From the NCBI GenBank assembly GCA_002897115.2, contig BCIH01000002.1, positions 1,628,771 through 1,692,770 of the forward strand: a stretch of 64,000 nucleotides of DNA. The letters are read 5' to 3'. The position numbers and the translations under genes are program-made. The DNA is from Prototheca cutis. Its lineage: Eukaryota > Chlorophyta > Trebouxiophyceae > Chlorellales > Chlorellaceae. Positions 5,251 to 57,313 of this stretch are shown piece by piece; positions within the stretch are counted from its first letter, which is position 1; each line of letters begins with the position of its first letter. The notes under the pieces are model-generated. The model did not search any database and was not told the origin of the DNA. It was given only the letters and a program-made list of their open reading frames with translations.

Positions 5251-8200
5251 TCAGCCCTTGTCTTTTCCTGCATGGTGGCCCAGTATTCGTTCCAGGAGTT
5301 CGGCCTTGCTCCCCGAGACGTGCAGGCCACGAGCCCGCAGCCAGGGCTTCAAGATCGCCACAGGCAGCTTGCTCACCGTTCCCGCCCGCAGCGCCTCCTG
5401 CGTGATTCATTCAGAGCATGCCGCGGCATGGGAGGTCGTATGCATGATCAGCAAAAGGAATGCATTTTCTTTCCTTCATCTTGTTGGGGGCAGTATTAAG
5501 CACCACGCACTCTTTCACAACGCAATGGCGTACCTCTACTTCACGGATGCATGCGTCGTCGTCCCCAGCGGCTGGCCCCCCAGAGGCCTGGGAGCCCTTT
5601 CCTGAGTTCGCTCCTGGTGCCTTGCGTTTCATCCCCGACGCCGGGCTCTCATCGTCCACCATTACCGCCTCCTGAAGAGAAGAGGGGATTTGAAAAAAAA
5701 TCCATTGCCATGCGGTGCTCCTGACAGGGACACACCCCACACCCCAACTGCGAGGCACTCATCAAATCCTCGAAATCCACCTTGAATGCGCGTATGACGT
5801 CGGCCACCCTTTCAAAAGCCTCCTCATCGCATAGTGTATCATCAACAATCGCTTGATCAGGATCTTCCCCGAGCGCAAGTGCCTCCAGCACCTGCCAGCC
5901 AGATTGAAGTGAAGGCCACGTTCCCGGTGTGTGTATGAATGTGTGTGTGTGTTTTGGAAAGGGGGGGCCGCTGGGAAAGACCCCATGGAGTAGGTAGGAC
6001 AGACTGACTTCACAACTGGCGTGTATCCAGTGATAAAAAGCCACAGCAATCACCCAATCATCTCAGCACCTGGTAGTGCCGCTGCAGGTGTGGGTTTGCT
6101 ATCGTGTCACTGTAAAAGGATTCAAGAGGCAGGCTGGCTATCAGCGCATCTGCCGCCTCCAGCTGCTTGGCCGTCGGGTCCACATGCTGCAGGACATTTG
6201 TGTCGAAGGACGAGCATAGGGGCGCCAACACCGCCACAACGTACTCAGGCGCACCAACCCCCGTAAGAACATCCACCAGACCAAATTACCTCGGTCCCCA
6301 CAAACCCTGCGTCCTCCTCGGGCCGCCGAATGTCGTCAGCAAAGGGAAGGTAAATCACATGCATGCCAGGCGGCGATACCTACAGGATGTGCATGTGGGC
6401 GATGGTCGCACGGATCGCCGGGGTGGGGTGGAGCTGTGTCTTGCATCTGAACTGCGCCAGCAAATAATTCCATGTTCGGCCGTGCCCATGCAACAAGACA
6501 GACACACATGCAAGCTTGAAGGGCAAAAAGTGCCGACCCGGGGCCCCCCTCCATGTCTCCAACTCCACCTGTAAGCCCGATTCATCAACTTCTTCCTGCT
6601 GGGCCAGAAGAGCCACCAGCCTCGGGCCGGCGGCCGCCGAGCGGCCAAGCGCCGCGATCGCAATCTGATCACGCTCCAGCATTGCCCCATGCAGTGCCAC
6701 AAAGGCCGCGGTACTGCCGGCCACGATGCCCTCGTCTGGACCAACAGAAGAAGGGGTAGGTTGATGGGGCGAATGGGCAGGGGGGGGACGTGCGGATGTA
6801 CTTCCTGCATCAACCACACGGCCCTCCTCCCTCCACCCAAGCCCTTCCNCCCCCGCCATTTTCTCCATTCAACGACAAACACTCACCTGGATACAAGAAC
6901 GACGAGCTGCGCAGCTGGTGCCAGTCCTTGAGACAGTCTCGCGGCTTGAACCCAAGCAGGTTTAGGGTACGGGGCGTCACGTGCTTGACTCTGGCGATCT
7001 CCTGCCTGTCCACGTACACCTGTTGTTGGAATGGATGAACAGTGTGATACTGCCATGTGGGTGACGGACAATTCTTGCCCGGCTGGCAGTAAAAATCGAC
7101 CAGCAATTCCGCTGCCCGATCGGCCAGTTGGGTGTCGCGCATGGAGCACTGCCAGCACCCGTTGCACCAGCACAGGGCCGAGCCAGCCACCCCAAGCCAC
7201 CCCTACACAGACATCCGTGTGTCACCTTGGGAAATGTGGCGTATTTGAAGTGGGCATCCTTGGTATTCGGGAAAAAGTACTTGGGCTGCTGCAGTTCAGG
7301 CTTTTCCTCTTCACCCAAGATGGCCCCTGCAATGAACAAACGTGGTGGGTGGGCTGTTGCAGGGCATCTCCTTCCGCACCGGTCAGCATCATTGTATGGA
7401 GCAACCCGGCTTTTCAAACAGCAAATACTCCACACTCGTCTGTGTGCATGAGTGTGTGTGTCTCTCCCCAGAAACTAGGAAAACGAAATGCGGCAATCGG
7501 CATCATCATCGAGACCTGTGTCGGCATCGATCAGGGCAGAGTGGACGCTGATCACTTCGTTGGTGACTCCATGGACCCATTGTGCCTGCACAAGGTTTTG
7601 GGTAAGCCTGCCCCCTCATACCACGCAGAAGGCGCAATGCATTGAGACCCCGTGCCATATGTACCGATCGGCAGCTGCCCTCCAACTCCCAACAATGACA
7701 CACACACACACATACACTCTCGCTGCAATGACAAGATCATGTTTGCCCCCCAAAACACACACGCACCGAGCCCTTGGTCGCGGGCTGGATCGTTGCATAC
7801 ATGGCCACCGCAATGCTGAACCCAGGGCTCAGGTCCAGGGAATACGTCCCCAGCGTCCGTTGCTGATGCGCCTTGGCTCTGACTGTCGACTTGAGGTCCT
7901 GCATGTTTTGGGGGCTTCCACATCACCATGTTGTTGTAGTTGAGATCAGGACCTTTGAGTTGTCTACAATTAACAGTGGCAGCATGGGCCAGCAGCTGCA
8001 ACGAAACCGTCAAAGCCCATAGTCAGGTCCAGCTGCACTCGTGCTCACCTGGATACGTCCGTATCGCTCGACACCATGTGGCAGCTTGGGACCCGAGAGA
8101 TTTCCGTCCGCCATCACCACGCTCGCCATCTGTGGCAGTGCAGGGGTAAGGGGTTTCCAAAAATGCTTCTCTGACAAAAAGCTGCCGCCTCTTTAATCAG

Positions 8201-19420: not shown

Positions 19421-20960
19421 CTAGTGCAAGAACATCTTCTTGAGTTCCTTGTTCATCTTGTGCAACGGCCCCTTGAGCGGTCCTCTACGTTTCTTCCGTG
19501 GAGAGCTGTTCTGCAGAGGGAATGGAAAACACGCTTGGGCACAGTGTGCAGGCCATGCCCTAAACGTAACAGTTCAATGCCCCTTGTCCAACCTCAAAGA
19601 CCACCACCGCCCGGCTGCAAACCCCGAGAACCCACACCTCAGACACGTCGGTCAACGGGTGGCAGTCGACTGGGGACGGAAGCAGCTCAGACTGAGCTTC
19701 TCGGCGCTGGCGAGGCGTCAGTTGTGGCGTGCTCGCCAGGCTCGTGGAGACGGACGTAGGCTTTTTGAGCTTAGCAGCTGCGGCGCCAGGCATGGGCTCC
19801 CCCTGTGCAAGGGAGAGCGGTGGTGCCGGTGGCCTCATGCGACAAACCTCCATCTCATGTCCTCAACTCCGCAAAGAGGCGCGGTGCACAGGGCCTCGCT
19901 ATCGCCTCGCAAACCGATACCTTGTCAGTAACAACCATGGCAGTGACAGCTGTCGCTGCTGAGATCCTCGGACTGGGACTCTCATCTGCGGATGACGGGG
20001 ACAGGATCCATGTGATGCCACGCTCGTCACAGAAAACACAACACACACTGACAAGAGAAGTCACACTGCTGCTGCTGCTGCACAGCCATGATTTCAATGG
20101 CTTAAGTTCATAAACAAGAAAGACACGTGGCTCCACACACCTACAGCACTATATCTCTTGCTGGGCGAGATCACACTGGCAGCATCAGGAACGCCCTCCG
20201 GCCCTTTGGGAGTGGACATGTCTGCATGGGGTTGGTGAAAGCAGTAGCACTTCCGGATAGCTGCACTGGTTCCACATTAATGGATGATGGGAGCATCGCA
20301 CCCAGCTCTTCAATAGACTTGCCTGGCGGGGCCTCTTGCAGCTTGGAAGGGTCCCTTGCTGACCAGCCTTGTTCGATCGCTTCCACAATCCCCTGTGATG
20401 TTGATACGGCGTGAAAGCATCGGAATTAGCCATTGACTCAAAAAAAAGAACCCCGTGACATTCCCCGCCCCCCGCCCACCATGCACGCCGGCTTGGCCTT
20501 TCCTGGGCCGCAGGGACCCGTCCACTCGGGGATCAAGATCACACCTGCGTGCCGCCCGCGAGGATTCCAGCGACGGTGTACAATAATGTAATGGATGCTA
20601 TCATGTTTTGCTGTAATCCATGTGCCAGCCGACGAAGATCAAACGCTATGGGTATTTCAAAGCCACTCAGGGCCAGCCTCGCCTCCTCCAGCAGATTGAC
20701 CATCGCGTGCTCTTGCCCTGCTTGGGAAAAAAAGTCGATTTCGTGCGTGTACAGGATCATTTCCGGCCTGATGTGGTTTATGAGAGTGCTTTGGGTGGGT
20801 TCTGGTGGGGGCCTGGCGGTCTGTCGCCAAGAGCTTGCGAGAGTTTCGGAGCGACTTCCCAAAAATCGCTCACCCTGGGCGGCTACTGGTGAAATGGCAT
20901 GTTCCCCAATAATCCCTTTCAGGCCCTCCCGTGCGAACATCTCCTTGTACGACTGCACGA
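19421..20960 (-). CDS. Unidentified protein with basic C-terminus (5' end unresolved)
   Basis: I do not recognise this gene, but several exons fit with intact phase. They are ~20875-20960 (GINIIVQSYKEMFAREGLKG), ~20545-20800 (INHIRPEMILYTHEIDFF...LLEEARLALSGFEIPIAFDLRRLAHGLQQN...GGTQ) and ~20170-20400 (GIVEAIEQGWSARDPSKL). After an unclear middle part come ~19640-19805 (AAAAKLKKPTSVSTSL) and 19421-19510 (NSSPRKKRRGPLKGPL...KKMFLH, TAG at 19421-19423). The GGTQ|GIVEA and VSE|NSSPRK joins are in phase. The lysine/arginine-rich tail suggests a nuclear protein. The upstream exon lies inside sequence shared with the inverted repeat at ~57.1 kb, so the 5' end may have been disrupted or copied by that element. 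No start codon can be defended. Confidence 0.45.
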
Positions 20961-22806
20961 TTATGTTTATTCCGCACCAAAAGTCTAGTCTCAGAACAGG
21001 GCGGGGCCAGGAAGGAGCGCGTTCGTGGGCAACCGCCCTTCGACTGTCGGGGGCTGCGCAGCTGCGGGGGACGGGGCCACCAAACCGCGCGTGTAGGCCC
21101 TCGCAACGCCTGTTACCCCAGAAATCAAGATAATGAGAGGATTGAGGGTGCAAATGGGAGTTGTGTCTCTGCGCGCTCTCTCTCGGCGGCCCTTGGCCTT
21201 CTTCAAACGCGCCGGCAGCAATCGCCTTAGGGTTCATGCACTGGTTGGGCCCCAGAGCAGGTGCTGTTTGGGTTGATTTCAGAAGAAAATCTCGTCTTAT
21301 GCCTCCATATCCTCATTCAATTTCCCACTGTTGCCAAATCAAGGGAAGTACTGTGCAGACAAAGACAGGTCAATCTCTCTAGGGATCAGATTCAAGTTCA
21401 GCAACAGGCAAAGTCATGACCACCGTTTTCTGGGCCTCTGCAGCTGCATCTGGCCTCGCTGTGGTCCTCCGCTTGTACTTCTGGCAGCTGCGGTTCTGTC
21501 TGCCACCCGATCTTCCGCTTCTTGGATCCAGATCCTGAGTTGGGAGGTATCTCAGCCCAGAGCCCTTCTTCTTCTAGCCCTGATGCGTGCTTGTCGATGG
21601 GTTCCAGGGAGCGGGTGCTCAGCACTTTGTGAGTGAATCGAATATGGTCATCCTTCGGTGCGTGTGGGTTCTTTAGCATGTGGCACTGCACCATGCTGTT
21701 CATGACAAAGTCTCCCAGGGGTGGCGAGAGGCAGGGGTTGAAGGTCCGGCATTGTCCCCATGCTGGGATTCCCCACTCGGGGTCAGCAAGACCAGCTGGC
21801 TGTCCACAGCAGCCTGCTGGGATCTGGCACCACGGATATCTCATGATGAATCCTGCTCAGCATAGCGGGGATTGGGCCACCGCTGCCGGCGGCTGTCCCG
21901 GCGGCCGTCAGCCTGCTGGCCCGGATCATGGCAGTCATCCATGTGCTGGGCGTCATCGGCGGGCTAAGGAGCTGTGGTGGCTGGTGTTGGTTGATGTCCA
22001 CAGTCAAAACACCTTCTAATCCTCCTGCATAGAAGCGGACCACGGGAATGGATAGTGCAGCCACTGCATCGGACTGGTCGATGTGCCGGCTGTTGCAGGG
22101 CCGGACACAGCTCTCCAGTCGGCAGCGGGCCACCCCGCACGACACACTGCTGCCGCATGAGGAAGCCCTTGAAGGGAGGGCTGCACCAGCGGCTGTCCTG
22201 GGACGTGCACACCACAGGGGTGGCATTGAGGTTGTCAAGCACGCACAAGAGGCACGCCTTCGAGATGCGGCGGGGGTGGGAAGAGAAGACACCCACCCAG
22301 GTGCTACGCCGACATCAAGCGCAACAGGTGCTCCAGGTCGGGGCGAGGCTGGCAGGTGTGGCGCCCCACGGTTGACAGTGGCCTTCCCAGCACCACTCCG
22401 CGCAACTTAAACAGCAGCACCGCCCGGAACAAGTACGCTGTCCTCAAATGCCAGAGGTGTGGCATGGTGTGGAACCGCGACATCAACATGGCATGGAACA
22501 TCCGCCACCTGGGGGAGAGACTGGTCCTGACCAGCAAGAGGCCACCGCCCTTCGATCGCAAACCCAAGCTTGCCTCCGCACCTCCACCTCCCGGGCGCTC
22601 CACCTGACATGATCTGATCACCAGGATTTGCCGCAGGCTCTGCGCCGTGGATCAGTACCATTGAACGCATGCTGTGAGGCAATGCCCAGCAACTTTGTTC
22701 TCGGTAACCTCGTGAGTCGCCTCCTCTCCCCAGTGGAGAGCGGGCGCCGTTGTGGTGTGCCCCCCAGTCTGTCTGGAATCGTACCCCACCCCGGCTACTG
22801 TGATCA
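20897..22806 (+). mobile_element. Fanzor/TnpB-like element, copy 1
   Basis: A ~1.9 kb block whose reverse complement recurs at ~55265-57168. Near the left end both copies share TGCGGAATAAA and a CAGT.TACAAGG string, then long matching stretches. Near the right end both share GATCAGTACCATTGAAC and GTCTGGAATCGTACCCC. The copies differ by many substitutions and small indels. The plus strand ends in a TnpB-type zinc-ribbon/RuvC-III segment (see the pseudogene entry). Edges are judged by eye from where similarity fades. I found no obvious terminal inverted repeats or target-site duplication. It lies between the unidentified gene and the 3' end of NOP9. Confidence 0.7.
22290..22607 (+). pseudogene. 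TnpB/Fanzor-like nuclease C-terminal remnant, copy 1
   Basis: The last ~80 codons read NKYAVLKCQRCGMVWNRDINM followed by AWNIRHLGERL, to TGA 22605-22607. This is the hallmark end of TnpB/Fanzor RNA-guided nucleases: the second C-x2-C of the zinc ribbon, then the RuvC-III W-x-RD-x-N-x-A-x-N motif, whose Asp is catalytic. Here the consensus Ala-Ala-Arg is changed to Met-Ala-Trp. Upstream, the same frame soon meets stops, and similarity to copy 2 continues in other frames. Either introns or frameshifts separate the rest. I could not place RuvC-I, RuvC-II or the first C-x2-C with confidence, so I treat it as decayed. An IS605-type tnpA partner is not visible. Confidence 0.7.
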
Positions 22807-27102: not shown

Positions 27103-27182
<80 letters not shown>

Positions 27183-27364
27183 GAGGATTTAGAGACCTAA
27201 ACGATCGCATGTCTACCCACGCCCAGCAGCAGCCTGGAGTCCCGCCAGTGGCAACGCACCTCTGGGCACCAGCCGGCTCCGCCTGGGCGCCCCAACCGCC
27301 TTCGTAACCGAGATCCTGCAATCCGGGCGAAGACACCACCCTGATCATTGAGTATTGGCGACAT
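25948..27364 (-). CDS. GLB1: Nitrogen regulatory protein PII, plastid form
   Basis: A trimeric 2-oxoglutarate/ATP/ADP sensor that in plants and algae regulates N-acetyl-L-glutamate kinase (arginine synthesis) in the chloroplast. Six exons (27217-27364, 26974-27083, 26722-26827, 26430-26517, 26169-26273, 25948-26020) join exactly to 209 residues. The ~50-residue Arg-rich leader ([18 protein letters not shown]) is transit-peptide-like. The core is classic: [35 protein letters not shown], the T-loop [10 protein letters not shown], then [20 protein letters not shown] and VADVIRIRTGETG. The C-terminal [17 protein letters not shown] resembles the glutamine-sensing Q-loop extension of green-algal PII. 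The intron after exon 1 contains the 77-base G-run at 27105-27181. Start choice rests on phase plus the leader. It is head to head with UBA1. Confidence 0.94.
27104..27181. repeat. 77-78 base poly-G tract in PII intron 1
   Basis: An uninterrupted G run on the plus strand (C on the PII sense strand). It sits between the first two PII exons and just upstream of the exon-2 acceptor. Its length may be a sequencing or assembly artefact, but related shorter runs occur in many introns here. Confidence 0.85.
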
Positions 27365-27983: not shown

Positions 27984-28621
27984 ATGACAGACGCCGTGAT
28001 GGCCAACGGGGCAGAGACTGTCCACGAGATTGATGAGGACCTGCACTCGCGCCAGGTTCGGTCGTTGTTGGATGTCCTGGGGGACCAAGCATGCCGCCCT
28101 GGGGCATGTGGGAGCGACGTCCATTTTTGTGATTGGCAGGCGCACTCCAAGTGGAGGTGCCGGCCACCGTGCATCGCCGCGCGACGCTGCTGACGTCGTG
28201 CCTTATTCGTGCGATATCCTCCCACTCGCAGCTGGCGGTGTATGGCAAGGAGTCCATGCGCCGCATGGCGACTGCGAACGTCCTCATCTCTGGGCTGAAC
28301 GGGCTGGGCGTCGAAGTCGGTACGTCGGGCGGGGTGTGTGTCTGTTTGGTCTTGTTGGAGGAGGAAAAGGGGGGGCTGGATGGGTGTCGACAGGCATGTC
28401 ACGGCAGCATGGATGGGACGGATGTCCTCACGTATCTGGCTCTCCTGAAACTACCCTTCTCCCCCACAGCCAAGAACGTGATCCTGGCCGGAGTCAAGAG
28501 TGTCAAGCTGCAGGACACAAATGCCGTCGCCCTGCGTGATCTGGGGGCCCAGTTTTACCTGCAAGAATCCAGCGTGGGCAAGAACCGCGCCGAAGCCTGC
28601 AGGTGTGTATGTGTGTGTGCC

Positions 28622-28672
<51 letters not shown>

Positions 28673-31600
28673 GGGGGGGGGGGGGGGGGTGGGCGCGGCC
28701 AAAGCAGCTCCATGGAAGTGTGGCACCTGGGATGACAAAGCTGCCGAGTTGCATAAGAGCATGCTGCCGACACATCCCAGGCTCCTTTCGGTCCGGACTA
28801 CTTCCGCTGATCCGTGCGCTTGGCCCCAAAATAATCTGTATACAGGGATGCGCTGCAGGAGCTCAACACGGCAGTCAACGTGACGGCCACGGCCGAGCCG
28901 CTGATGGAGGAGCTTCTTGCCGGCTTCCAGGCACGTATACGCTGGTTGTGTGCATCGTGGGGTGTGAATAGAGATGGGCATTCACCTGAGCTGCTTGACC
29001 CTGGAGAGGCTCACAACCCGGGCCCNGCCTGTAGCGTGGGAGATGCTTCCCAGTTTTGAGAGTGCCACATGTTTACAAAACTCTTGCAGGTTGTGGTGGT
29101 CGTGGACACTCCGCTGGAGGAGGCCATCCGCATCGACGCCTTTTGCCATGCACAAGGCATCGCCTTTATCAGGGTGCGTGAGTGTTGGTGGTTGCTGGGA
29201 ATGCAGAGACCGGAGCGTGGAAATGTTGTCTTGAATTATTCTCTGGAGAATGGATACAGTTCCCAAATGCACTCCCCCACCCTAACTGCCAATCCCATGA
29301 GCCGGCCACCTCAACACGAACAACAACACGCAGGCGGACGTGCGAGGCTTGTTTGCGTCTGTGTTTTGCGACTTTGGGCCGAGTTTCACGGTGTCGGACG
29401 TGGACGGCGAGGAACCACATACGGGCATCGTGGCCGGCATTGCGCAGGGACCCACCACCCTGGTCACCTGCGTCGAAGACGACCGTCTCGAGTTCCAGGA
29501 TGGTGGGTGTGTGTGGATGGGGGGATGGAGGGGTGGCTGTGGAAAGGCCGGGTGTGAAGTGCGTCTCTGTGGCCAAACCGGCGCGATGCAGCTGCCAGGG
29601 GGTTGCACTCTGAGTGCATGCATGCATGCATGCATGCATGCATGTCGACACATCACGGAAACTCTCCCCCGACCCCCTCCGCCCGATCCCACAGGCGAGC
29701 TGGTGACGTTTTCAGAGGTAGTGGGCATGCCGGAGCTGATGTCCGGCAAGCCCATCCGCGTTAAGAACTGCAAGGTGGGTTGGTAGTTGGGGGATTGGTT
29801 GATCGCCCTTTCTTATTTTCCCCCTCAAAAAGCCACATGTGCATCCGGCCTGCGCTCCCAAACACAAACCCCCATAATTGATTTTTCAAGACCCCCCCCC
29901 CCCCCAAAAAAAAAAAAACCAAAAATCTTGCAGCCGCACTCTTTGGAGTTGGAGCTTGACAGCACGGGGTTTGCGCCGTACGTGCGGGGCGGCATCTTGA
30001 CGCAGCACAAGCCGCCTCGTGAGATGAGCTTCAAGCCGCTGGCGGCCAGCCTGGCTGATCCGGGCGAGTTTTTGATCACGGATTTCGCCAAGATGGAGCG
30101 GCCAGCGCTGCTACACGCCGCGTTCCAGGCGGTGGACGGGTTTCGGGCGTCCGAGGCCCGGCTTCCCGCACCGGGTTCCAAGGCCGACGCCGCGGGAGTG
30201 TTGTCCCGGGTGGACGAGCTCATGCTGTCGGGGCGCAGCGAGTCTGACACCGCACTCCTGACAGCCTTTGCCAGCGGTTCGAGCGCGGTGCTGAGTCCGA
30301 TGGCGGCGCTGGTGGGCGGTTTTGTGGGTCAGGAGGTGGTCAAGGCTGCCAGCGGCAAGTTCACGCCGCTGCACCAGTGGCTGTACTATGACAGCGTCGA
30401 GTCGTTGCCGACCGAGGCGCTGGCACCCGAGGACGTGGCTCCCCGCGGCAGCCGCTACGACGACCAGATCGCTGTGTTTGGCGCGGCCATGCAGGCGCGC
30501 CTGGCGGATGCCCGCGTGTTTTTGGTCGGCGCGGGTGCGCTGGGCTGCGAGTTCCTAAAGGCGTTTGCCCTCATGGGCGTCGCGGCTGGCGGCGGTGCCG
30601 CCGGCGCCGGCAAGCGCGGTCTCCTGACCGTGACAGACGACGACACGATTGAGAAGTCCAACCTGAGTCGCCAGTTCCTGTTCCGGGACTGGGACATCGG
30701 CGGGAGCAAGTCGACCGTGGCGGCGGCGGCGGCGTGCCGCATCAACCCCGCGCTGCGCGTGCGTGCGCTGCAGAATCGGGTCTCTCCGGACACCGAGGAC
30801 GTGTTTGACGACGGGTTTTGGGGCGGGTTGGACGTGGTCGTGAACGCGCTGGACAACGTCGCGGCGCGGCTGTACGTCGACGCGCGCTGCGTGTACTTTG
30901 GACGCCCGCTGCTCGAGAGCGGGACGCTGGGACCCAAGGCCAACACGCAGGCCGTCGTGCCGCACCTGACGGAGAACTACGGCGCGTCACGCGATCCGCC
31001 GGAGAAGCAGGCGCCCATGTGCACGCTGCACTCCTTCCCCCACAACATTCATCACTGCCTGACGTACGCGCGCAGCGAGTTTGAGGGCGCGGTCGAAAAG
31101 ACCCCGGCCGAGGCCAACGCGTATTTGGCCGATCCGGCCCGCTACGCCGCGGGCCTGCGTGCGGCCGGCGATGCCGCGGCCCGCGAACAGGCCGAGCGGG
31201 TGGTTGAGGTGCTGCTGGACGACGGCATCGTCGATTTCGACGCGTGCATCGCGTGGGCGCGCCGCCGCTTCCGCGTCGCGTTTCACGACCGCGTCGCGCA
31301 GCTGGTCCACACGTTCCCGGCCGACGCCCGGACGTCGACGGGCGCGCCGTTCTGGTCGGCGCCCAAGCGCTTCCCCACGGCCATCGACTTTGACCCGACC
31401 GACGCTGAGGCGGGGGGCTTGGTGCAGGCCGCCGCCATCCTCAAAGCCCAGGTCCATGGCATCGAGGTTCCCGACTGGGCAACCGCGAGCGGGAGCGGAA
31501 GCATTGAAATCGCAGCAAAGGCCGCTTCGGTCCCCGTGGGCGAGTTTGTGCCGCGCGAGGGCGTGCGGATCGAGACCGACCCCAAGGCCCAGACCCCCGC

Positions 31601-37963: not shown

Positions 37964-38007
<44 letters not shown>

Positions 38008-38022
38008 ACGCATACGCCGGCG

Positions 38023-38065
<43 letters not shown>

Positions 38066-38165
38066 NNNNNNNNNNNNNNNNNNNNNNNNNNNNNNNNNNN
38101 NNNNNNNNNNNNNNNNNNNNNNNNNNNNNNNNNNNNNNNNNNNNNNNNNNNNNNNNNNNNNNNNN

Positions 38166-38260
<95 letters not shown>
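37964..38260. repeat. G-homopolymers flanking a 100-N assembly gap
   Basis: A G-run (37964-38006), a short unique islet (AACGCATACGCCGGCGC), a second G-run to 38065, N at 38066-38165, then ~95 Gs to 38260. The exact 100-N size is a placeholder, so real distance is unknown. Confidence 0.95.
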
Positions 38261-38262
<2 letters not shown>

Positions 38263-53013: not shown

Positions 53014-54309
53014 ATGGCGACCTCCAGCAGCCCGTCAGAGGAGGGACTGCATGTCCAGACCAAGTCCTGCCCACCAGCCCTTTGTCGAGCGTCATGGTAA
53101 GCAGCCCGCTTGGAATACAGTTGTATGTTGTTAGGAAGAATGTCCTTTGCCGCTGGGGTTGCTGTGAGTTCAGTGCAATCCTTTCTGGCGGAGCCTGCAC
53201 TGTTGCATCAACGCAACCCCCCCCCCCCCCCCAAAAAAAAAAAACCAAAAAAAACAGGAAGCTGGACGACTTTAAGATTGTCAAGCTGCTGGGAGAAGGC
53301 ACACTGTCCACCGTGACGGCAGCGACCTGCAAGGCCAGTGGCATCAAGGTCGCAATCAAGAGTTACCACAAGGACCGCATGACCGGCATCCACATGCGAC
53401 AGGTGGCTCGGGAGATCAACATCCACAGCGAGCTGTGCCACCCCCGCATCTGCCCGCTCTACGCGGCCTTCGAGGATGCAGACGGCATTCACATGGTGCA
53501 AGAACTTGCAGAACACGGTGAGTGTTTGGGTGCGGTGAGGAGGAAGGGTGCCACCTGAGGGGAGCTGATGCTTGTGTTCATAGCACAGGACCGTCAGGGA
53601 GGAGTGCCCGTTTAGTTCGGGTCTTGCTCGAATCACAGTTCGCAACAGTTTCAGGCTCAATTCATTCCCCAAACCAAACCGTTTAGGTGACGTGTACGCC
53701 AGCTTGGCAAGGCAGGGAGGTTTCATGCTTGAAGATTACGTAATCCAGGAAGTTCTGGTGCCCGTACTGCAGGCGGTGCAGTACCTCCACAACAAGGGTG
53801 TCATGCACCGCGACATCAAGCCCGAGAATGTTCTGCTGACTGCCACGGGTGCCAAGCTTGCGGATTTTGGCCTGGCCATTGATACTTCCAAGGAGCTTCC
53901 CCTGTCCAGGGTCGGCACCCTGGACTACCTTGCCCCAGAGGTCGGTCTCGGGTGTTGATGCCCCAGTCTGTTTACAGACGGCTCTCTTGCTTTGCAACAG
54001 TCCGTGGGCAAAATTGAGTTTGGTGTCTTGCCCCGTATGCCCCCTCATGCCAAAGGCAACACTCGCCCAATCCAATCCAATGCAATCCCACCCACCACAG
54101 ATGGTCAAGCTCTCTGGCAGTTTCAGCGGCGGCGCACTCGACCAAGCCCGGGGCAACTACACAAGCGCTGTGGACATCTGGTGCATCGGTATCCTGGTGT
54201 ATGAGCTCCTGGTGGGCGGTCCACCATTTGAAGCGCCCACAAAGTAAATCCTATAGAAGCAATGTGCCCCAGGGTTGTCATGAGCTCATCGTCACCTCAA
54301 TCGTTGAAC

Positions 54310-54375
<66 letters not shown>

Positions 54376-54382
54376 CACCCCC

Positions 54383-54417
<35 letters not shown>

Positions 54418-55264: not shown

Positions 55265-57168
55265 ATCCAGGTGGGGTACGATTCCAGACAAACTGGGGCG
55301 CACCCCACAAGAGATCCGTGAGGGTAGCCCAGAAACAAACTGGCCTCACAGCACGTGTTCAATGGTACTGATCCGGGGCGCAGGGCCTGCAGCAAATCTT
55401 GATGATCAAATCATATCAGGTGGAGTGCCCGGGAGGGGGACGTGCAGAGGGGGGGAGCTTGGGTTTGCGATCAAAAGGCGGCGGCCTAGTGCCGGTCAGA
55501 AGCAGCCTCTCCCCCAGGTGGCGGGTGTTCCGCGCGGCGTTGACGTCGCGGTTCCACACCACGCCACACCTCTGGCATTTGAGGACAGCGTACTTGTTCC
55601 GGGCGGTGCTGCTGTTTGGGTTGCGTGCAGTGCTGCCGCTGGATGGGGGCCACTGTCAACCATGGGGCACCACGTCCACCGGTCTCGCCCCGGCCTGGAG
55701 CACCTGTTGTGCTTGATGCCGGCGTAGCACCTGGGTGGGCGTCTTCTCTTTCGACCTGCGCCGCATCACGAACACATGCCTCTTGTGCATGGTCGGCCGC
55801 CTCAATGCCACCCATGCGGTGTGCATGTCCCAGGACAGCCACCGGTGCAGCCCTCCCTTCGAGGTCGTGCTCACGTGGTAGCAGTGCGTCGTGCGGGGAC
55901 GGCACGATGTCGGTCAGGGAGCTGTCCCCAGCCCTGCAACAGCTGGCGCATCGACCAGACTGATACAGTGGCTGCACTATCCATTCCCGTGGTCCGCTTC
56001 AATGCAGGATGAGGAGAAGGCGTTTTTTGACTACGGACGTCAACTGGCACCAGCCACCCACAGGTCCTCAGCCCGACGATGAAGCCCAGCACATGGACGA
56101 CTGCCATGATCCGAGCCAGCCGGCAGATGGCTGTTGGGTCAGCCGCCGGCAGCGGCGGCCCAACCCTTGCTGTGCTGAGCAGGGTACACCATGAGACCTC
56201 CATGGTGCCAGATCCCGGCAGACTGCTGTGGACAGCCAGCTGGTCTTGCTGACCCCGAGTGGGGAATCCCAGCATGGGGACAATGCCGGACCTTCAACCC
56301 CTGCCTCTCGCCACCCCTGCAAGACTTTGTCATCAACTGCATCGTGCAGTGCCACATGCTGAAGAACCCACATGCACCGAAGGATGACCATGTTCGATTC
56401 ACTCGAGGAGTGCTAAGCACCCGCTCCCCAGAACCCGTCGACAAGTGGGCGGCAGAGCTAGAAGAAGAAGGGCTCTGGGCTGAGATACCTCCCAACTCAG
56501 GATCTGGATCCAAGAAGCGGAAGATCGGGTGGCGGGAACTCTCAGTCGCCAGAAGTACAAGCGGAGGACCACAGCGAGGCCAGATGCAGGTGCAGAGGCC
56601 CAGAAAACGGTGGCCACGACATTGCCTGTTGCTGGACGTGAATCTGATCCCTAGAGAGATTGACCTGTCTTTGTCTGCACAGTACTCCCCTTGATTCGAC
56701 AAAATAGTGGACAATTGAATCATGATATGGAGGTGTAAGACGAGATTTTCTTCTGACATCAACCAAACAGCACCTGCTCTGGCGCCCAAACAGGTGTAAG
56801 ACTCTTTGGTTCTTGCCAATCCCGATCGCGCTTGCTGGCGGCGCGTTTGAAGAAGGCCAAGGGCCGCCGAACGAGAAACCGCAGAGACACAACTCCCATC
56901 TGCATCCGCAATCCTTTCACTATCTCGATTTCTGGGGTAACAGGCGTTGCAGGGCCCTACACGCGCGGCTTGGTGGCCCACCCCCCCCCGCAGCTGCGCA
57001 GCCCCCGAACGTCGAAGGGTGATTGCCCACGAGCGCGCTCCTTTCTGGCCCCGCCCTGTTATCAAACCGTGCTTTGGGTGCGGAATAAATATTTTCGCGC
57101 AGTTATACAAGGGAGTGATGCACGGGTGCCGCACGGAAGGGCCTGGGAGGGATTTTCGGGAATCGTGG
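55265..57168 (-). mobile_element. Fanzor/TnpB-like element, copy 2 (inverted relative to copy 1)
   Basis: Matches the reverse complement of 20897-22806 over nearly its full length with scattered substitutions and indels. Shared anchors include GTCTGGAATCGTACCCCACC at one end and TGCGGAATAAA near the other. It sits between the kinase 3' end and the riboflavin kinase gene. No terminal inverted repeats or target-site duplication are obvious by eye. A 379-codon stop-free minus-strand run (56139-57278) covers much of it but is not open in copy 1. Confidence 0.7.
55406..55725 (-). pseudogene. TnpB/Fanzor-like nuclease C-terminal segment, copy 2
   Basis: The minus strand reads NKYAVLKCQRCGVVWNRDVN then AARNTRHLGERLLLTG, ending in TGA at 55406-55408. 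C-x2-C followed by WNRDVNAARN is the full TnpB/Fanzor consensus for the zinc ribbon and RuvC-III Asp, better preserved than in copy 1. Upstream text GIKHNRCSR stays open for about 40 codons, then similarity to copy 1 continues in another frame. Whether introns or frameshifts break it I cannot decide, so it is listed as a remnant. Confidence 0.72.
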
Positions 57169-57313
57169 TATTCCCGGGGCATTTCGAGCACACGACCCAT
57201 CTCATCAATAGCGTCCTGTCTTCTTGAGTGATCACATGCCTTGATCGAAGGTATTGGAACTTGATTCTGAAACCCCATCTGTGGACGGGGCCCGAGTCGG
57301 CGTCGGCGTTGGC

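What the first reader, a model, noticed from the sequence alone, without database searches (positions are those of the whole stretch)
20897..22806. Inverted pair of Fanzor/TnpB-like (eukaryotic OMEGA nuclease) elements, 33 kb apart
Seen: the block at 20897-22806 recurs in reverse complement at 55265-57168. Both end in a reading frame with C-x2-C plus WNRD-x-N (copy 2: WNRDVNAARN). Known: this zinc-ribbon/RuvC-III signature is specific to TnpB and its eukaryotic relatives, the Fanzor RNA-guided nucleases, which occur in green algae. Inferred: a Fanzor-like mobile element, with copy 2 better preserved. TnpB/Fanzor guide RNAs usually overlap the 3' end of the nuclease gene, so the ~200 conserved bases after each stop (22608-22806 and the matching 55265-55405) deserve a look as a possible omega-RNA region.
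Basis: partly seen in the sequence, partly recalled or inferred. Interest (0 to 1): 0.78.

Follow-up and report, generated by a model that had tools for sequence, protein, structure and literature searches.

The report
Gutted Fanzor transposons, repeated genome-wide
The two matching blocks are worn, internally deleted copies of a mobile element whose full-length relatives elsewhere in the same genome carry a gene for a Fanzor, a eukaryotic RNA-guided DNA-cutting enzyme; the kind is known, but how these stripped copies spread, and whether they still make guide RNA, is open.

Summary
In detail: window 20889-22791 (+) and about 55269-57175 (-) are 85% identical copies of one element. They are not a special pair: 40 places over 1.1 kb match in this genome.

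Neither copy can encode a nuclease. Full-length relatives (about 5.6-6 kb) carry a Fanzor gene; the 1.9-kb element is that element minus one deletion of about 3.7-4.1 kb between 14-nt direct repeats, shared by 39 of 40 copies. Only the end of the last exon remains (second CxxC, WNRD).

The full-length protein passes the Fanzor sequence tests: RuvC-I DPG (7 of 7 loci), glutamate six residues before the zinc finger (9 of 9 copies tested), PF07282 57.8 bits, amino-acid change held back (ratio 0.32). Copies lie between 6-11 bp target duplications, 9 bp commonest. No transposase was found; movement in trans is inferred.

The 3' end folds into hairpins, but covariation does not exceed shuffles: an omega-RNA is possible, not shown. 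Two more Fanzor-like families occur; one is clearly Fanzor1. A Fanzor-encoding top repeat is already reported for Auxenochlorella (PMC12636532).

The parts
20880..20888 (.). left target-site duplication CGGCTACTG of copy 1
20889..22791 (+). copy 1: internally deleted, non-autonomous Fanzor-element derivative
20889..22427 (+). 5' part shared with full-length Fanzor elements (no Pfam domain found in the matching part of a full-length copy)
22414..22427 (+). deletion junction: 14-nt GCAGCACCGCCCGG, present on both sides of the missing part in full-length copy E40
22414..22607 (+). remnant of last Fanzor exon (second CxxC, WNRD = RuvC-III); frame 22416-22607 scores 22.9 bits to PF07282, below its 26.3 cut-off
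22643..22791 (+). 3'-terminal region matching the possible omega-RNA scaffold of full-length copies; weak fold here, z -1.16
22752..22789 (+). 3'-terminal hairpin region (GTGGTGTGCC..CGTACCCCAC), which also holds the right inverted repeat
22792..22800 (.). right target-site duplication CGGCTACTG of copy 1
55269..57175 (-). copy 2: same deletion derivative, inverted; 5' border placed by eye
55599..55612 (-). deletion junction in copy 2 (same 14 nt)
55271..55308 (-). 3'-terminal hairpin of copy 2 (GTGGGGTGCG..CGTACCCCAC, ten pairs in the predicted fold)

Best explanation
Both blocks are copies of a non-autonomous DNA transposon made by an internal deletion of a larger Fanzor-encoding transposon. 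Shown: full-length elements of about 5.6-6 kb exist in the genome and carry a Fanzor gene whose frame ends 86-92 nt before the element's 3' end; the 1.9-kb elements keep the 5' 1.5 kb and the end of the last exon plus 3' end, joined at a 14-nt direct repeat; many copies sit between short target duplications. Inferred: one deletion founded the 1.9-kb family; a cut-and-paste transposase, supplied in trans and not found here, recognises the short imperfect inverted repeat at the tips (5' GGGAATAGCACGATTCC, 3' reverse complement GGGTGGGGTACGATTCC) and moves full-length and deleted copies alike; the Fanzor helps the full-length element persist by guide-directed cutting of sites that lack it. The 3' end is kept in deletion derivatives at least because it is the transposase's end; whether it still gives omega-RNA is open.
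For: Copy number and identity. Full-length structure and deletion. Open RuvC-I to RuvC-II frame in 7 of 7 distinct loci with that part, 90-96% protein identity to the first; 223 of 441 single-change codons synonymous against about a quarter expected, ratio 0.32 (pairs not independent). DPG plus E-x6-CxxC in 9 of 9 copies tested, six full-length and three deletion forms, after leaving out a 171-279 nt GC-AG intron (DPG itself seen in the full-length ones). PF07282 57.8 bits versus cut-off 26.3. PDB sequence hits led by OrfB zinc-ribbon/IS605 OrfB chains (E about 1e-4), mimivirus TnpB-like L79 (0.00018) and Parasitella Fanzor1 (0.0023). Duplications: 26 of 43 copies at score 6 or more against 9% of shuffled flank pairs; 9 of 43 at score 9 or more against none. 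A second deletion form, about 1.15 kb (5' 277 bp plus the last ~840 bp), is seen in six fetched copies.
Against: No transposase found: MULE, Transposase_mut and IS1595-type models gave no match; the hAT model gave none either, but its control was silent. Sixteen of 43 copies gave no scored duplication and one scored below 6; lengths range 6-11 bp, 9 bp in 8 of the 26. All homology outside the genome is to the zinc-ribbon/RuvC-III end: the RuvC-I/II profile alone matched no TnpB or Fanzor structure, NCBIfam TnpB and Cas12f models matched well below their cut-offs, and the protein collection gave nothing below E 0.65. Full-length copies are not pristine: ambiguous bases and N runs are common, one (E47) has a stop codon in the N-terminal half, and 31 of 55 variable codons change the residue in some copy. 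Within the 1.9-kb family distances run from 0.044 to 0.210, so there was no single burst. Exon joins rest on sequence alone.
Confidence: 0.82

Rival explanations
1. The deletion derivatives are kept because their 3' end is a working omega-RNA gene: each copy makes a scaffold RNA with its own flanking sequence as guide, charged by Fanzor from full-length copies, which cuts the matching empty site so that the short element is copied back in.
For: Both deletion forms and the full-length element keep the last exon's end and the 3' end; hairpins run up to the element border, z -5.0 for a full-length copy (L054) and -4.1, -3.4, -3.0 for three 1.9-kb copies, -2.0 for a 1.15-kb copy (8 sequences folded); published Fanzor1 guide RNAs include the inverted repeat and duplication and run about 15 nt past it (PMC10711439, passages).
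Against: Both window copies and L034 have z only between -1.2 and -1.8. Covariation is not above shuffles: 1 of 22 pairs changed on both sides, 242 of 500 shuffles as good; 1 of 33 in the other alignment. In the 1.9-kb family the last hundred bases are the most divergent (0.164) and the last-exon stretch (0.063) is no slower than some 5' stretches (0.053-0.134). Recognition of the ends by a transposase alone explains keeping the 3' end.
Confidence: 0.13
2. A Helitron2-type rolling-circle element, like the Fanzor1-bearing CRe-1, -2, -3 of Chlamydomonas.
For: 3' hairpin, internal deletions and duplications of variable length (6-11 bp here) are shared with CRe-1/2/3 (PMC3627910, Results section read whole).
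Against: The two ends share an inverted repeat at the very tips, 12 of 17 bases, counted by eye; no T-rich tetranucleotide stands before the 12 duplications printed. No Helitron model was searched in the genome.
Confidence: 0.08
3. The motif is a chance or unrelated zinc ribbon in a repeat, with no Fanzor ancestry.
For: In the window alone the frame scores below the PF07282 cut-off (22.9 versus 26.3).
Against: Full-length relatives, which share both ends with the window copies, have the complete hallmarks.
Confidence: 0.02

Closest known systems
Fanzor-encoding most abundant repeat of Auxenochlorella UTEX 250-A (PMC12636532; passages and one section)
   Same: Small green-algal genome with an uncharacterised high-copy element that encodes a Fanzor.
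   Different: Not compared by sequence. Our genome shows no light-harvesting match, so it is probably not Auxenochlorella itself. Ends, duplications and deletion forms are not described in the text I saw; its supplements were not open to me.
Fanzor1 elements without transposase: MuDR-type ROr-4, PBl-3, MCi-4 with 9-bp duplications (PMC3627910, Results read whole); SfAV element (PMC10711439, passages)
   Same: Fanzor-only element with inverted repeats and a duplication of similar length (MuDR-type); needs a transposase in trans.
   Different: MuDR type was assigned there by similarity of the ends to known elements; here no MULE transposase was found, so the superfamily is open.
CRe-1/2/3 (Chlamydomonas) and CMe-1A/TE-N2 (Cyanidioschyzon) (PMC3627910, Results read whole)
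   Same: High-copy algal Fanzor elements with internally deleted or short derivatives.
   Different: CRe are Helitron2-like with 7-19 bp duplications; CMe-1A has no inverted repeat or known duplication.
Parasitella parasitica and Spizellomyces Fanzor1 (PDB 9cf0, 8gkh)
   Same: The third family of this genome (L071) matches them at E 2.6e-31 and 1.2e-14 and aligns with the finding's protein at 34% over 98 columns.
   Different: The finding's own Fanzor is far more distant (Parasitella E 0.0023).

Membership tests
Fanzor (full-length relatives of the finding) | RuvC-I with D-P-G | tested here: met
   GIDPG in 7 of 7 distinct loci that reach it; a second, gap-broken partial piece in L040 is not counted
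Fanzor (full-length relatives of the finding) | Shifted RuvC-II glutamate six residues before the first CxxC (definition from PMC10711439, passages) | tested here: met
   E-FRTSQI-CSAC in 9 of 9 copies tested after leaving out the intron; L043 not tested because of ambiguous bases; finger spacing 20 (18 in one), against 12-18 in that paper's TnpB pattern; splice not confirmed by transcripts
Fanzor (full-length relatives of the finding) | D-X(125,275)-[TS][TS]-X-X-C4 finger-X(5,50)-RD (PMC3627910) | tested here: met
   D to TS about 174 residues, T-S-Q-I-C, four cysteines, GVVWN then RD (counted by hand)
Fanzor (full-length relatives of the finding) | TnpB-type zinc ribbon domain PF07282 | tested here: met
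   57.8 bits, cut-off 26.3, one spliced C-terminus; unspliced frames 37-49 bits
Fanzor (full-length relatives of the finding) | RuvC/WED/REC fold | not tested
Fanzor (full-length relatives of the finding) | Guide RNA from the 3' end and RNA-guided cutting | not testable with these tools
   Folds only; covariation not above shuffles
Fanzor nuclease gene in the two window copies themselves | RuvC-I, RuvC-II and first CxxC present | tested here: not met
   Removed by the internal deletion
Cut-and-paste DNA transposon | Target-site duplication of fixed length | tested here: inconclusive
   Duplications are real (26 of 43 at score 6 or more, control 9%), but lengths spread over 6-11 bp; 9 bp in 8 of 26, and in 6 of the 9 best
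Cut-and-paste DNA transposon | Terminal inverted repeats | tested here: inconclusive
   Short, imperfect, 12 of 17 by eye
MuDR/MULE | MULE transposase in element or genome | tested here: not met
   PF10551 and PF00872 no match; one genome, with assembly gaps inside copies
Helitron2 | Insertion after TTTT, RepHel partner | tested here: inconclusive
   No T-rich tetranucleotide before the 12 duplications; partner not searched

The most novel reading that the evidence does not exclude
The stripped copies are a dispersed guide-RNA array: dozens of nuclease-free elements, each with a working omega-RNA whose guide is its own flanking sequence, loaded by the few full-length Fanzors and used to hold or re-home every insertion in the genome; gene drive by parasites of a parasite.
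Probability: 0.1. Interest if true: 0.78.

Novelty: new member of a known kind. Interest (0 to 1): 0.42.

Why it matters
Fanzors are known as genes in many eukaryotic transposons, but what they do for the element is not settled. One small genome with three Fanzor-like families, full-length copies with largely open frames and dozens of deletion derivatives gives a natural test: if short copies without the nuclease express and use guide RNA, Fanzor works in trans; if not, transposase ends alone explain their spread.

Tried and rejected
Transposase hunt: MULE, Transposase_mut, IS1595 and hAT models in the genome, none matched (the hAT control was silent, so that one says nothing). Pfam on ten frames of a full-length copy's first 4.7 kb, both strands: nothing up to E 1. 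Protein-collection searches with the Fanzor frame: none at E 0.001, and one PF07282 protein at E 0.65 with a region query. Viral contigs with the RuvC profile: none of 42 stretches confirmed. Rfam on the window: none at gathering scores. PDB search with the unspliced frame and with the RuvC-I/II profile alone: only unrelated weak hits.

Covariation as proof of an omega-RNA: rejected, counts equal shuffles. The stem positions do pair in 92.4% of cells against 36-71% when slid, but the stems were picked on these sequences.

Unpaired 5' ends as possible transposase-bearing elements: 10 of 40 scored 5' ends had no 3' end, zinc-ribbon match or 1.9-kb copy within 10 kb among scored hits. One that I fetched (L075) is a 1.15-kb-form copy running into an assembly gap. 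Another (L076) follows the family for about 720 bases, then 1.1 kb matching nothing held; three of its frames there, of 113-221 residues, gave no Pfam domain; whether it is truncated or has another interior is open. The other eight were not examined.

One search was aimed at a flank by mistake and says nothing. An earlier reading that copy 2 has a stop codon in its zinc-ribbon stretch was dropped: one search used the wrong frame.

Full report
Observation. The block at 20897-22806 matches 55265-57168 in reverse complement (84.6% over 1825 columns). The genome that holds the window (19.9 Mb, 23 contigs) has 40 places over 1.1 kb that match the block, from 40 scored of 137 candidates. A query with the 3' end finds 40 matches from 40 scored of 95 candidates, and one with the 5' end 40 from 40 scored of 117. 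About a hundred copies of all sizes is a fair guess; it is not a count.

What the copies are. Searching the genome with PF07282 gives 97 matches from 150 scored of 181 candidates. Many of the best-scoring ones share only their two ends with the finding's element. Fetching several whole shows full-length elements: 5608 (E52), 5822 (C6) and 5968 bases (E47) from 5' to 3' end. E40 is 6.5 kb but holds a repeated piece of about 0.6 kb around a 100-N gap, and E51, 8.4 kb, is mostly N. The finding's element aligns to E40 at 92-1615 and 6221-6568; the 14 bases GCAGCACCGCCCGG stand at both edges of the missing part. The missing part is about 3.7 kb in E52, 3.9 in E54 and 4.1 in E47, and 4.6 in E40 with its repeated piece. 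The junction is spanned in 39 of the 40 copies; L039 is a partial copy. A second deletion form joins the first 277 bp to the last ~840 bp (L041, L042, L049, L050, L055, L059). So the two window copies carry no RuvC-I, RuvC-II or first CxxC.

The Fanzor gene. All 7 distinct loci found with the RuvC-I to RuvC-II stretch keep it open for 193 residues (L043 and L060 are the same locus), at 90-96% identity to the first. Of 441 codons with a single change in pairwise comparisons 223 are synonymous, where about a quarter would be expected; the ratio is 0.32 (pairs are not independent). Not all is intact: E47 has a stop codon in its N-terminal half and several copies have N runs. Between TSQ and ICSAC lies a stretch of 171-279 nt, with lengths not always divisible by three and runs of G in some copies, bounded CAG|GC...GCAG|AT: read as a GC-AG intron. 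Joined, 9 of 9 copies tested show E-x6-CxxC-x(18 or 20)-CxxC-x6-D (six full-length and three deletion forms). The joined C-terminus scores 57.8 bits to PF07282. Its best PDB sequence hits are OrfB zinc-ribbon and IS605 OrfB chains (Cas12f by recall), then mimivirus TnpB-like L79, a transposase, Parasitella Fanzor1 and Cas12f. It aligns at 34% with the third family's C-terminus, itself clearly Fanzor1. I place it in Fanzor; Fanzor1 rather than Fanzor2 is my inference.

Ends and movement. Of 43 copies with both ends, 26 have a duplication scoring 6 or more, against 9% of shuffled flank pairs; 9 score 9 or more, against none. Lengths are 6-11 bp; 9 bp is commonest, 8 of 26, and 6 of the 9 best. 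Copy 1 in the window has a perfect 9-bp one; copy 2 has none scored. The tips are 5' G[TG]GAAT..ACGATTCC and 3' ..GGAATCGTACCCCACC(C), a 17-base imperfect inverted repeat counted by eye. No transposase turned up in the full-length element or, by four models, in the genome. Movement in trans by an unseen transposase is therefore inferred. Assembly gaps fall inside several copies, so a transposase-bearing copy could be hidden.

Age. The 38 aligned 1.9-kb copies lie 7-12% from the family majority, pairwise K2P 0.152 on average, 0.044-0.210. Over the shared last-exon region, 8 full-length copies differ by 0.099 and 37 1.9-kb copies by 0.123.

The 3' end. In six full-length copies the Fanzor frame stops 86-92 nt before the element's end. 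The last 150 nt of L054 fold into several hairpins, z -5.0; the other seven folded range from -1.2 (window copy 1) and -1.8 (window copy 2) to -4.1. Stem-loops vary in length on both arms at once among copies, but such symmetric changes can also arise by replication slippage. Formal counts do not exceed shuffles, and only 1 of 33 pairs changes on both sides in the other set. Those alignments use 27 and 23 of the 53 ends extracted, sorted by type; three further ends had been skipped there as unrecognisable, and L014, L021 and L032 are in neither. In the 1.9-kb family the last hundred bases are the most divergent stretch, 0.164, perhaps partly because two kinds of end occur; the last-exon part is 0.063, other stretches 0.053-0.134. 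I leave the omega-RNA open.

Other Fanzor-like families. L066, L068, L069 and L070 are 88-90% alike and about 67% like family 1's last exon; PF07282 25.9 bits for L069, just under the cut-off. L071, L072 and L073 belong to a third family with an inverted repeat (TGCAGGGCAAAAAT..) and TA beside it (by eye); a piece of L071 matches Parasitella Fanzor1 at E 2.6e-31 and Spizellomyces Fanzor1 at 1.2e-14, though PF07282 gives it only 24.8 bits. Short derivatives of it in L037 and L056 keep the same 3' part.

Host and prior art. No light-harvesting match was found (the control rang in one of 14 genomes, and introns lower the sensitivity), while the window holds a ubiquitin-activating-enzyme-like frame and a carbonic-anhydrase-like frame (named from recall). 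A non-photosynthetic trebouxiophyte such as Prototheca is my guess. Auxenochlorella UTEX 250-A is reported to have, as its most abundant repeat, an uncharacterised Fanzor-encoding element (PMC12636532, passages and one section). Searches for Prototheca with Fanzor, Fanzor with Chlorella and Fanzor with non-autonomous or deletion terms listed no other paper whose title or abstract start describes this family; that is all the absence rests on.

Noticed in passing
L071 1-801, L072 936-3308, L073 1027-3852 (C8:56200, C12:27435, C2:1165526): A third Fanzor family, clearly Fanzor1 (Parasitella Fanzor1 E 2.6e-31), with an inverted repeat of some 20-25 bases by eye and TA at the ends; ~0.6-kb derivatives in L037 and L056 keep its 3' part.
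   Followed up: partly
L066, L068, L069, L070, L074 2781-4291, L057, L058: A second Fanzor-like family, copies of about 1.5 kb, 87-90% alike, with C-x2-C..NRDKNAARNM at the end; full-length gene not sought.
   Followed up: partly
L037 748-1352: A family-1 copy ends about 12 bases from a third-family short derivative: one element beside another.
   Followed up: no
L076 1-1138 (C12:81000-82137): A copy that follows family 1 for about 720 bases and then continues with sequence matching nothing held; truncated copy or different interior.
   Followed up: partly
window 27104-27189, 28603-28693, 37964-38262, 54309-54403: Stretches that look like simple sequence match each other, mostly at 87-100%.
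   Followed up: no
3' ends of family-1 copies: Two kinds of 3' end occur among copies that share the same internal deletion, which suggests exchange between copies.
   Followed up: no
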